The notes under the pieces are model-generated. The model was not told where the DNA came from. It saw only the letters and a program-made list of their open reading frames with translations, and did no database searches. Source: Phycisphaerales bacterium (GTDB lineage: Bacteria; Planctomycetota; Phycisphaerae; Tepidisphaerales; Tepidisphaeraceae). Taken from it: a stretch of DNA of 64,000 nucleotides. The translations under genes were made by a program, and so were the position numbers. Within the stretch, counting starts at the first letter, position 1. Each line of letters opens with the position of its first letter. The stretch is from the NCBI GenBank assembly GCA_020847375.1, contig JADLCB010000014.1, positions 124,001 through 188,000 on the forward strand, written 5' to 3'. Of this stretch, positions 917 to 59,770 are shown in pieces.

Positions 917-954
917 TCCGCCCTGAGATTTCTTCCGCTCAGGGCGGACTTTTA
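917..954 (+). terminator. Rho-independent terminator after the sigma factor gene
   Basis: A perfect 11-bp inverted repeat (TCCGCCCTGAG at 917-927, CTCAGGGCGGA at 938-948) with a 10-base loop is followed by CTTTTA. This is a classic terminator on the + strand, about 100 bases after the sigma factor stop codon. Confidence 0.8.
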
Positions 955-962
955 TATCCATC

Positions 963-1104
963 CAGGGCAAACGCAAGTAGGCGTCCGATAGGCAATCTCT
1001 TACGAGCCGCGACCGTCAGGGAGCGGTTTTGAACCGATCACCGCTCCCTGACGGTCGCGGCTCGTTAATACATCGACCCTCGCGGGCTACTTGCGATTAC
1101 CCTG
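963..1104. mobile_element. MITE-like element, copy 1 (142 bp, with 10-bp target duplication)
   Basis: A short non-coding element bounded by 18-bp terminal inverted repeats: CAGGGCAAACGCAAGTAG at 963-980 and CTACTTGCGATTACCCTG at 1087-1104, with two mismatches. The interior holds a long GC-rich palindrome (ACGAGCCGCGACCGTCAGGG and its complement). It is flanked by the exact direct repeat TATATCCATC at 953-962 and 1105-1114, the footprint of a transposition event. Copies 2 and 3 are at 7313-7455 and 53068-53209. There is no transposase inside, so it must move in trans. The open frame across it that reads LPDGRGSL is an artefact of the palindrome. Confidence 0.85.
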
Positions 1105-1192
1105 TATATCCATCGCATTTGATTGAGCACAGGTTTTATTTCGAGACTGATCGGTTAATCTGTCATTTGGCCAAAGCGAAAGGACAGCCACC

Positions 1193-4807: not shown

Positions 4808-5329
4808 AATGATCTACCTGTTAAGACTGCTAAAATAGAGCGCGCAGTATAACTGCGAAAACGGGGAATACTGTACCGATTATCGGCTCTGGCAACCCAT
4901 TTTCCCCATGAATAGGGGTAGTGGCAAGTGATTTATGTTGCGAAACATTGTTTTCTGCATGGGAGGGAATGGTTTCAAAAAATTGTCTTTTGGTTCTATC
5001 GGAGGAAAGAGAGGGAAATGTTCATCGCTTGGCGGATACGCAGTGGAGTGATCAGGCATGGCCGGTTCGATCGCACCTGCAACGTGCCGGAGAACGCGAC
5101 CCGAAAACCGACCCGAAAACCGAACCGAAAAACGAGCTGGAACGAGCTGGAAGCGTTAGCGACAGACTCCCCGACGGACTTCAACTTCAACCGACTCGGC
5201 CTGAAAAAGCTCATCATCACCAGCTACGAGGGTTCGCCCATCGTCGGGAAATTGCTATTCACCATCAATGACACGCATGGTCAATGATGATAAGCTGAGG
5301 CCGGCCACTACATATCAGGGATTCGCATT
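4808..5329. other. Gene-poor stretch next to an acquired nuclease gene
   Basis: About 520 bases between glycogen phosphorylase and the HsdR-N protein. Two overlapping + strand frames of about 116-119 codons run through it (roughly 4921-5287), but neither has family resemblance or a good ribosome site, so neither is called as a gene. The region changes from AT-rich to a short tandem repeat at 5099-5134. It may be the scar or promoter region of a horizontally gained segment. Confidence 0.5.
5099..5134. repeat. Three tandem copies of a 12-bp unit
   Basis: The unit ACCCGAAAACCG occurs twice exactly (5099-5110, 5111-5122) and a third time as AACCGAAAAACG (5123-5134). It is followed by a partial repeat of AGCTGGAACG. 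It lies upstream of the HsdR-N gene in sequence with no convincing coding content. Confidence 0.75.
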
Positions 5330-6489: not shown

Positions 6490-6552
6490 CGATGAGGCGG
6501 TGACCAACCGCCGGGGGATTTTCGAGTATCTGTTGGGCGCGGTCAACCGACA
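6490..6552. repeat. Downstream repeat shared with the restriction-modification locus, copy 1
   Basis: From 6490 about 47 bases, beginning CGATGAGGCGGTGACC and including ATTTTCGAGTATCT, match 59712-59758 with four mismatches by eye; the similarity then fades. The only other copy in the window lies just after the XhoI-like nuclease gene. Copy 1 is in frame with the stop of the preceding gene and would read DEAVTNRRGIFEYLLG, so it could be the remnant of a longer or different reading frame. Confidence 0.65.
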
Positions 6553-7312: not shown

Positions 7313-7455
7313 CAGGGCAAACGCAAGTGGGCGTCCGATAGGCAATCTCTTACGACCCGCGACTGCAAAGGAGCGATTTTTGAGCCGATCACCGCTCCCT
7401 GACGGTCGCGGCTCGTTAATACACCGACCCTCGCGAGCTACTTGCGATTGCCCTG
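7313..7455. mobile_element. MITE-like element, copy 2 (143 bp)
   Basis: Terminal inverted repeats CAGGGCAAACGCAAGTGG (7313-7330) and CTACTTGCGATTGCCCTG (7438-7455) enclose the same GC-rich hairpin core as copies 1 and 3. The left arm of the core has diverged (GACTGCAAAGGAGCG instead of GACCGTCAGGGAGCG). No 10-base flanking duplication is visible, so this is probably an older insertion or one affected by rearrangement. It lies upstream of rex (leftward) and of the exported protein gene at 7655 (rightward), in their shared regulatory space. Confidence 0.8.
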
Positions 7456-7654
7456 TTCTACTGCGTCGCCAGAATCTTGTTTTATTGACTCTTTTACGGG
7501 CTTCAGATACTTTCGCTGCACGGGTAAAGTTGCGTCAATCCGTGAGATGGAACAAAATTTCGGAGTCCTGCCGCACCAATTATCATAATTTTTGAACAAT
7601 GCGGTTCATGCGTTGGCGATACAAATGCCCGATGAACCAGCGGAGATACGCCTC

Positions 7655-29609: not shown

Positions 29610-30125
29610 TTATTTGGAGAAAAAGTTCCAGGAAAAACCGCCGTTGAGATTCGACGTTGTCTGCCCGGAGTATGAGCCGTTGCTGTTGTAGTAGTTTTGT
29701 CCACCGAAAGGATTGGACATTGACTGCCCTGAGTATGAGCCGTTGCTGTTGTAGTAGGTCTGTCCGCCGAAGATATTTGACGTTGACTGCCCTGAGTATG
29801 AGCCGTTACGGTTGTAGTAGTTCTGTCCGCCAAAGATGTTTGACGTTGACTGCCCTGAGTATGAGCCGTTGCGGTTGTAGTAGTTTTGTCCGCCGAAAAT
29901 GTTGGACGTTGACTGTCCGGCGTACGAGCCGTTGCTGTTGTAGTAGTTCTGCCCGCCGAAGATATTTGATGTTGTATATCCCGGAGAAGTTCCGCCGGAA
30001 TTGTTGGAGGGAAATACCTGAGCCGTTGCTGGCGAAGACATGGCCAGCGTTATCATCGCTGCTGCCATAGCCGAAAAAGCCAATCGTCCCAAATTACGAT
30101 AAACAGGTTGCTTGAGCGGATTCAT
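29610..30125 (-). CDS. Exported protein made of 21-residue tandem repeats
   Basis: 171 residues. A signal peptide (about 1-36, ending PATAQ) is followed by five near-identical 21-residue units of the form GQSTSNIFGGQNYYNRNGSY(S) and a sixth degenerate unit that ends the protein. The units are poor in charged residues and rich in Asn, Gly, Ser and Tyr, suggesting an extended surface or matrix polypeptide. Similar GGQ-x-YY-x-x-NGSY repeats occur in uncharacterised secreted proteins of many bacteria. No enzymatic motif is present. It is transcribed alone. Function unknown. Confidence 0.75.
   Translation of the reverse strand: MNPLKQPVYRNLGRLAFSAMAAAMITLAMSSPATAQVFPSNNSGGTSPGYTTSNIFGGQNYYNSNGSYAGQSTSNIFGGQNYYNRNGSYSGQSTSNIFGGQNYYNRNGSYSGQSTSNIFGGQTYYNSNGSYSGQSMSNPFGGQNYYNSNGSYSGQTTSNLNGGFSWNFFSK
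29640..29985. repeat. 63-bp coding tandem repeats
   Basis: The DNA behind the 21-residue units repeats every 63 bases, with about 5.5 copies and a few changes per copy, mainly at the Ser/Arg codon and at silent sites. Such arrays can gain or lose units by slippage or recombination. The repeats are coding and contiguous, with no spacers, so this is not a CRISPR array. Confidence 0.8.
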
Positions 30126-52334: not shown

Positions 52335-53003
52335 TCATGCGATGTAACGGGTTGGGTCGGCGACACCAGCCTGGGCAAAGCCCCGGCGGCGCAGGAGACA
52401 ACTATCGCAATGTCCACAGGCCCGGCCATCTGGGGCGGGGTCGTAGCAACTGTGCGTCAAACTGAAATCCACGCCCAGGCGGTGGCCGAGCTGAATGATC
52501 TGCGCCTTGCTGAGATGTAATAGCGGGGCGTGAATGGTGAAGTTATCCAGCGTCGTGCCGGCACGAGCGGCAGCCTGAAATGCCTGAATAAAAACCGGCC
52601 GGCAGTCAGGATAACCGCTGAAATCGACCGCGTTGACACCGATGAACACATCGGAAATTTTCAGGACTTCGGCCCAGGCCAGGGCGTAACTGAGGAAAAT
52701 GGTGTTGCGCGCCGGCACGTACGTGATGGGGATGCCGGGTTGATCAACCTGATCGTGGGGGACGGCGATATCCGCCGTCAAAGCGCTGGCGCCGAATTGG
52801 CGCAGGTCGATCGTGACGAGGCGATGTTCGACGACGTTCATCGACCGGGCGATAAGCTCAGCAGCGCGCAGCTCGTGATGATGGCGCTGGCCGTAATCGA
52901 AGGTCATGGCGTAGAGCGGGGCAAAGCCCTGATCGCGGGCGATGGCCAGGCAGGTGGCTGAATCCAGACCGCCACTGGTTAAAACGATTGCGCTTTTGGG
53001 CAT
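52335..53003 (-). CDS. queC: 7-cyano-7-deazaguanine synthase
   Basis: Converts 7-carboxy-7-deazaguanine to preQ0 with ATP and ammonia, in queuosine tRNA modification. From ATG 53003 the 222 residues start [20 protein letters not shown], with the SGGLDS ATP-pyrophosphatase loop in the usual place. Zinc ligands are in [21 protein letters not shown] longer frame reaches 53141, but that N-terminus is the translated MITE, so it is rejected; ATG 53021 is possible. Neither start has a clear ribosome site. No queD, queE or queF is in the window. Transcribed convergently with the BatA-like gene. Confidence 0.95.
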
Positions 53004-53067
53004 GGGTGAATTGTCAATCATAGCAGCAGGCAAGTCGAGCGCAACCGGCGCGATTGGGTCAATGATC

Positions 53068-53209
53068 CAGGGTAAACGCAAGTAGGCGTCCGATAGGCAA
53101 TCTCTTACGAGCCGCGACCGTCTGGGAGCGGTGATCGGCACAAAACCGCTCCCTGACGGTCGCGGCTCGTTAATACATCGACCCTCGCGGGTTACATACG
53201 AAAGCCCGG
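53068..53209. mobile_element. MITE-like element, copy 3 (142 bp, with 10-bp target duplication)
   Basis: The left terminal repeat CAGGGTAAACGCAAGTAG (53068-53085) is intact; the right one (53192-53209) has six mismatches. The GC-rich hairpin core is as in copies 1 and 2. The direct repeat GTCAATGATC at 53058-53067 and 53210-53219 is exact. It lies between clpC and queC, starting about 65 bases before the queC start codon, where the queC promoter should be. Confidence 0.85.
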
Positions 53210-53260
53210 GTCAATGATCCGTGCCGGCCAAGCGCAGGGTTGCGGACGATTCAACGATCC

Positions 53261-59711: not shown

Positions 59712-59770
59712 CGATGAGGCCGTGACCCACCGCCGGGGAATTTTCGAGTATCTATTGGTCGGGGCGATTA
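59712..59770. repeat. Downstream repeat shared with the HsdR-N locus, copy 2
   Basis: CGATGAGGCCGTGACCCACC and the following bases, including ATTTTCGAGTATCT, match 6490 onward with four mismatches in 47 bases. It lies 32 bases after the endonuclease stop and reaches the 3' end of the convergent acyltransferase gene. It is not in frame with the endonuclease gene, so the shared sequence is not a shared protein tail. Confidence 0.65.

What the first reader, a model, noticed from the sequence alone, without database searches (positions are those of the whole stretch)
963..1104. A three-copy MITE-like family with exact 10-bp target duplications
Copies at 963-1104, 7313-7455 and 53068-53209 share a 142-143 bp length, 18-bp terminal inverted repeats and a long GC-rich inner palindrome. 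Copies 1 and 3 are flanked by exact, different 10-bp direct repeats (TATATCCATC and GTCAATGATC), showing independent insertions. No transposase of matching ends is visible in the window. A 10-bp duplication is a useful fingerprint for the missing transposase family. Three copies in 64 kb suggest many in the genome. The chance peptide LPDGRGSL across the hairpin probably creates many false hypothetical proteins in databases.
Basis: seen in the sequence. Interest (0 to 1): 0.7.

Follow-up and report, generated by a model that had tools for sequence, protein, structure and literature searches.

The report
ISAs1-type miniature transposon carrying captured REPIN
The repeated 142-base elements are real miniature transposons whose ends and 10-base target duplications match the ISAs1 transposon family, and the long hairpin inside is a second, unrelated mobile repeat (a REP doublet) that appears to have been carried along and now survives in this genome only inside the first.

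Summary
Observation confirmed; interpretation right but incomplete. The genome (3.0 Mb draft) holds about 29 near-full-length copies plus some ten fragments. Of 27 copies with two readable ends, 16 have a 10-bp target duplication matching at 8 or more positions (9 exact), against 1 of 702 mismatched flank pairs. The missing transposase family can be named: ISAs1 (PF13808+PF01609). ISAs1 elements in class-mates end in CAGGGCnnnCGCATGTAG-like repeats and make 10-bp duplications; one in the same taxonomic family ends in CAGGGCAATCGCGAGTAG (17/18 identical). No ISAs1 transposase was found in this genome.

The new part is the inner palindrome. It is a REP doublet (REPIN): two inverted copies of GAGCCGCGACCGTNAGGGAGCGG, a hairpin with covarying stem and GTNA loop. 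The same REP occurs, without these ends, in 102 of 397 class genomes and flanks RAYT (Y1/HuH) genes there. Here all 59 exact copies lie in MITE loci, and the only RAYT is flanked by a different REP. So an ISAs1-type MITE captured an orphan REPIN and amplified it. A second ISAs1-end MITE (40+ copies, another genome) independently carries a GTAG-tagged REPIN. New variant of known kinds; no experiment, no empty site.

The parts
953..962 (.). left 10-bp target site duplication of copy 1 (TATATCCATC)
   Evidence: genome-wide statistics
963..1104 (+). MITE copy 1, 142 bp, both terminal inverted repeats intact
963..980 (+). left terminal inverted repeat CAGGGCAAACGCAAGTAG, ISAs1-type
   Evidence: compared with ISAs1 ends
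1004..1027 (+). first REP unit (type A) GAGCCGCGACCGTCAGGGAGCGGT
   Evidence: RAYT association; covariation
1040..1063 (-). second REP unit, inverted; with the first it makes the REPIN
1087..1104 (-). right terminal inverted repeat CAGGGTAATCGCAAGTAG
1105..1114 (.). right 10-bp target site duplication of copy 1
7313..7455 (+). MITE copy 2, 143 bp, no target duplication left; 5' REP arm decayed; lies between the rex gene start (7251, - strand) and the ORF at 7592
7391..7414 (-). intact inverted REP unit of copy 2
53058..53067 (.). left target site duplication of copy 3 (GTCAATGATC)
53068..53209 (+). MITE copy 3, 142 bp, right end decayed, spacer between REP arms inverted relative to the outer arms; lies between queC and a Clp ATPase gene (both - strand)
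53109..53132 (+). first REP unit of copy 3 (1 mismatch)
53145..53168 (-). second REP unit of copy 3
53210..53219 (.). right target site duplication of copy 3

Best explanation
The element is a non-autonomous ISAs1-type MITE in which the interior between the two transposon ends is a captured REPIN. Shown from sequence: (1) terminal inverted repeats and 10-bp target duplications at most readable copies; (2) ISAs1-family insertion sequences in related genomes have near-identical ends and the same duplication length; (3) the inner palindrome is two inverted REP units of a family that flanks RAYT (class-3-like TnpA-Y1) genes elsewhere in the class and exists there without the MITE ends; (4) in this genome all exact REP units of that type lie in MITE or MITE-fragment loci, and the resident RAYT is flanked by a different REP type. 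Inferred: a REPIN landed in (or was enclosed by) an ISAs1-type element, which was then moved and multiplied by an ISAs1 transposase acting in trans; the REPIN spread by DDE transposition rather than by its own RAYT; the transposase was later lost or is missing from the assembly, so the family is probably now quiescent. Copies in the window sit between genes and probably do nothing beyond adding a strong hairpin to intergenic DNA.
For: Copy number and ends: 34 forward and 34 reverse terminal-repeat hits versus 3 and 0 for the control. Target duplications: 16 of 27 at 8/10 or better, 9 exact, versus 1/702. ISAs1 link: G041 (1530 bp) and G013 (1313 bp, same family) IS copies end in CAGGGCAATCGCATCT / CAGGGCGATTGCATGT with exact 10-bp (once 9-bp) duplications; further ISAs1 loci show CAGGGCAATCGCA ends with 10-bp duplications; G172 1339-bp IS with CAGGGCAATYGCATGTAG ends and transposase, G016 CAGGGCTTTCGCATGTAGCC next to a transposase; G007, same family, CAGGGCAATCGCGAGTAG next to a transposase C-terminus. 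REP identity: relatives share only positions about 40-103, as doublets with variable spacers or as single arms; exact unit in 102/397 class genomes, 0 in reversed control; REP-pattern units around 12 of 18 close RAYT homologues (mean 0.02 hits per shuffled locus, 0 of 20 ISAs1 loci), with like hairpins visible by eye at at least 3 more; stem pairs 100% with covariation above all 500 shuffles. Orphan status: 59 of 59 exact type-A units in this genome fall in the fetched MITE loci; own RAYT flanked by GAGCCGGAAGCGTNAGCGACGG instead. Independent parallel: G215, at least 40 copies of a 154-bp ISAs1-end MITE around a GTAG-tagged REPIN, 26/29 with 8/10 or better 10-bp duplications, and a REPIN of that kind free of the MITE in the same genome.
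Against: No empty site in a sister strain: no other genome of the genus appeared among the relatives searched. No autonomous element in the genome itself, so the ISAs1 link rests on ends and duplication length of elements in other genera. The capture event itself is not observed. Position 14 of the terminal repeat differs (A here, usually T in ISAs1 elements). The draft genome (31 contigs, 94.8% complete) may hide an active copy.
Confidence: 0.9

Rival explanations
1. Ordinary MITE: an internally deleted IS whose interior happens to be palindromic; the resemblance to REPs is coincidental or the REP spread out of the MITE.
For: MITEs often have long internal palindromes (own knowledge; PMC4133298, describes strong folding as typical).
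Against: The same 23-nt unit is exact in 102/397 class genomes with 0 in the reversed control, occurs there as single or paired units with unrelated spacers and no ISAs1 ends, and flanks RAYT genes.
Confidence: 0.04
2. The whole 142-bp unit is moved by the RAYT (a long REPIN), and the outer arms are just REPIN-flanking sequence.
For: REPINs are RAYT-linked miniature mobile DNA (PMC3116915, title and abstract); the genome has one RAYT.
Against: Single-strand HuH transposition is not expected to leave 10-bp target duplications (established knowledge of IS200/IS605); duplications are found at most copies. The resident RAYT is flanked by a different REP type.
Confidence: 0.03
3. Mobilised by another DDE family with 10-bp duplications that shares CAGGG ends by convergence.
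For: No transposase with these exact ends was found in the same genome; other families can also make about 10-bp duplications (own knowledge).
Against: Up to 17 of 18 end positions match ISAs1 elements of the same taxonomic family and the duplication length agrees.
Confidence: 0.06
4. Fixed structural RNA or regulatory element rather than a mobile element.
For: Strong fold, intergenic positions in the window; base N of the REP unit equal in both arms in 19 of 22 copies.
Against: No Rfam match; target duplications, different neighbourhoods and absence of the full unit from all relatives searched.
Confidence: 0.01

Closest known systems
ISAs1 family insertion sequences (PF13808 + PF01609 transposase)
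   Same: terminal repeats CAGGGCnnnCGCA..., 10-bp target duplications
   Different: 142 bp, no transposase; position 14 is A instead of the usual T; interior is a REP doublet
REPINs / REPtrons with TnpA-Y1 class 3 (RAYT-like) of Planctomycetes, Acidobacteria and Proteobacteria (PMC6006769)
   Same: inverted pair of REP hairpins; relatives' RAYT genes flanked by inverted copies; protein motifs THVH or NHVH, WT, YVVxEQ-like
   Different: here the REPIN is enclosed in a DDE-type MITE, has no matching RAYT in the genome, and occurs only in that form
Bacterial MITEs in general (Correia elements, TIMEs; PMC4133298)
   Same: short, terminal inverted repeats, target duplications, strong fold, no coding
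   Different: interior is an independently mobile repeat family of another mechanism
ISPpu9, an IS inserted into REP sequences (PMC8450116)
   Same: physical association of an IS with REPs
   Different: the reverse nesting: here REPs lie inside the transposon ends and move with them

Membership tests
MITE | short (under about 300 bp), non-coding, terminal inverted repeats, multiple copies | tested here: met
   142-143 bp, 68 terminal-repeat hits, about 29 near-full-length copies
MITE | target site duplication of constant length | tested here: met
   10 bp; 16/27 at 8/10 or better versus 1/702 control
MITE | mobilised in trans by a transposase of an autonomous relative | not testable with these tools
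   needs an experiment; no candidate in this genome
ISAs1-derived | terminal repeats of ISAs1 type | tested here: met
   closest 17/18 in G007
ISAs1-derived | 10-bp target duplication as in related ISAs1 elements | tested here: met
   G041, G013, G047 copies: 10 bp, once 9
ISAs1-derived | ISAs1 transposase present in the genome | tested here: not met
   no PF13808 or PF01609 match in G000; draft genome, so absence is provisional. The element is therefore called ISAs1-type by its ends, not an ISAs1 insertion sequence
REPIN | two REP hairpin units in inverted orientation | tested here: met
   the single-unit fold alone is not above shuffles, covariation is
REPIN | REP type flanks a RAYT gene | tested here: met
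   in relatives G047, G052, G061, G073, G078, G092
REPIN | matching RAYT in the same genome | tested here: not met
   single Y1 gene, flanked by another REP type
TnpA-Y1 class 3 REP | 5' tetranucleotide foot CnGA | tested here: inconclusive
   CCGA precedes the unit in some relatives, ACGA in this genome; published alignments are in a supplement not readable here
TnpA-Y1 class 3 protein | motifs NHVH, W[TA], YV[VI]xEQ | tested here: inconclusive
   own RAYT: THVH, WT, YVVDEQ; one residue off in the first and last (motifs from PMC6006769)

The most novel reading that the evidence does not exclude
REPIN capture by DDE-type MITEs is a recurrent route by which REP repeats outlive or outrun their RAYT: orphan REPINs are repeatedly enclosed by ISAs1-type (and other) ends and amplified, perhaps because the hairpin itself favours transposition or tolerance of the MITE. 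Two independent ISAs1-type cases (this genome, G215) and a likely third with unrelated ends (G078) are seen.
Probability: 0.35. Interest if true: 0.65.

Novelty: new variant of a known kind. Interest (0 to 1): 0.5.

Why it matters
It names the missing transposase family from ends and duplication length alone, and shows a nested element in which a RAYT-dependent repeat has switched carrier to a DDE transposon. That gives a testable answer to how REP sequences persist in genomes without a matching RAYT. It also explains a recurrent false peptide (PLPDGRGSL and reading-frame variants) in predicted proteins: the REP unit is exact in a quarter of the class genomes searched.

Tried and rejected
ISAs1 or other DDE_Tnp_1 transposase in the genome itself: none. 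Rfam: only a tRNA in the window. Exact terminal-repeat scan of genome contigs: 31 single-hit loci in scattered taxa, no REP core, taken as chance. Literature on REPINs inside MITEs: none found in the searches made. G003 terminal repeat with 21 matching bases: single end, no partner or transposase. G209 and G204 ISAs1-end MITEs: no REP recognised inside. The organism was not identified by name; prepilin-like proteins and class-3-like RAYTs suggest Planctomycetota, which is inference only.

Full report
Observation. Copies 1 and 3 carry exact 10-bp duplications; copy 2 does not. The whole genome (3,022,698 bases, 31 contigs; the window is contig C14:124001-188000) has about 29 near-full-length copies and some ten fragments, and the terminal 18-mer gives 68 hits against 3 for the reversed pattern.

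Target duplications. I located both ends in 27 copies by fuzzy match to the terminal repeat and compared the flanking 10-mers. Nine are identical, 16 match at 8 or more positions, 20 if a one-base shift is allowed. Pairing the left flank of one copy with the right flank of another gives 1 of 702 at 8 or more. Copy 3 of the window (exact duplication, decayed right end) is not among the 27. The mix of exact, decayed and lost duplications points to insertions of different ages.

Transposase family. The genome has no PF13808 or PF01609 match. In class-mates, ISAs1 elements (both domains verified on the G172 protein) were delimited by comparing copies within a genome. G041 copies (about 1530 bp) begin and end with CAGGGCAATCGCATCT and G013 copies (1313 bp, same family as this genome) with CAGGGCGATTGCATGT or a variant; flanking duplications are 10 bp, once 9. 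A class-wide terminal-repeat search then found ISAs1 loci with still closer ends: G172 CAGGGCAATCGCATGTAG, G016 CAGGGCTTTCGCATGTAGCC, and G007 of the same family CAGGGCAATCGCGAGTAG beside a transposase C-terminus. The MITE variants CAGGGCAAACGCAAGTAG, CAGGGCAATCGCAAGTAG and CAGGGCTTTCGCAAGTAG fit this set.

The inner palindrome. A search of 100 relatives with the whole element matched only positions about 40-103, often only one arm. Reading the places shows two inverted copies of CGAGCCGCGACCGTNAGGGAGCGGT with spacers of unrelated sequence, or single copies. Two of the first places lay beside an ORF of RAYT type. A RAYT search in relatives and a pattern scan around the genes showed inverted REP units on both sides of many of them; 12 of 18 close homologues have units of the pattern, at least three more carry a like hairpin by eye, while shuffled loci give 0.02 per locus and 20 ISAs1 loci give none. 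Eight REP types from different genomes fit one hairpin, GAG + stem + GNNA loop, with all cells paired and covariation above every one of 500 shuffles. Taken alone, the DNA fold of a single type A unit is not better than shuffles (z -1.1), so the covariation is the evidence for the single hairpin. The variable base N lies in its loop. The exact unit is in 102 of 397 class genomes and 0 in the reversed control.

Orphan REPIN. All 59 exact type A units counted in this genome (30 forward, 29 reverse) fall in the loci fetched for MITE copies and fragments (59: 30 and 29). The one RAYT of the genome (C29:14062-14604) is flanked by another type, GAGCCGGAAGCGTNAGCGACGG, with about 12 copies, half of them around the gene. 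Hence type A has no visible partner here and is found only as MITE cargo.

Recurrence. Its interior is a doublet of a GTAG-tagged hairpin, GTAGCGGCCGACCCCCGTGTCGGCCGT (single unit z -5.2), and a doublet of that kind without the MITE arms occurs in the same genome. G078 carries the type A REPIN between other ends, GAACGTGTGTGAGAAG, without a tested duplication. Two ISAs1-type captures of different REP types therefore look independent.

Palindrome behaviour. In 22 readable copies the variable base N is the same on both arms in 19, with all four bases represented. In four copies (L023, L025, L028, L029) the spacer is inverted relative to the outer arms. Both fit conversion or inversion between the arms of a long palindrome; selection for pairing is not excluded.

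Limits. Literature searches found no report of REPINs enclosed in MITEs, but only open-access papers were searched and the searches were few. What is known of class 3 TnpA-Y1 proteins and their atypical hairpins is taken from PMC6006769.

Noticed in passing
L031:5904-6287 (G000 contig C2:65903-66286): Head-to-tail array of six 63-bp units, each one REP arm plus the right outer arm of the MITE, ending in one intact terminal repeat: a MITE half that has become a tandem repeat.
   Followed up: partly
window 5144-5165: A type B-like REP unit (GAGCTGGAAGCGTTAGCGACAG, 2 mismatches), the type that flanks the genome's own RAYT.
   Followed up: no
window 29638-30037: 63-bp tandem repeat, five copies, coding on the - strand for a 21-residue repeat (SNIFGGQNYYNSNGSYSGQST).
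   Followed up: partly
window 6490-6542 and 59712-59764: A 53-bp dispersed repeat, 89% identical, 53 kb apart, nature unknown.
   Followed up: no
L054 (G061) and L104: A RAYT gene with REP units lies in one open frame of a much longer ORF; REP units are read in frame as PLPDGRGSD / PLPYGRGSD peptides.
   Followed up: no
G019, L131-L133 and L137: Type A REPINs share longer flanks with GTCATCCTGAG...CTCAGGATGAC, possibly a further carrier element.
   Followed up: no
window 52335-53141: Longest-ORF calling extends queC into MITE copy 3, giving a false N-terminal extension; the likely start is near 53006.
   Followed up: partly
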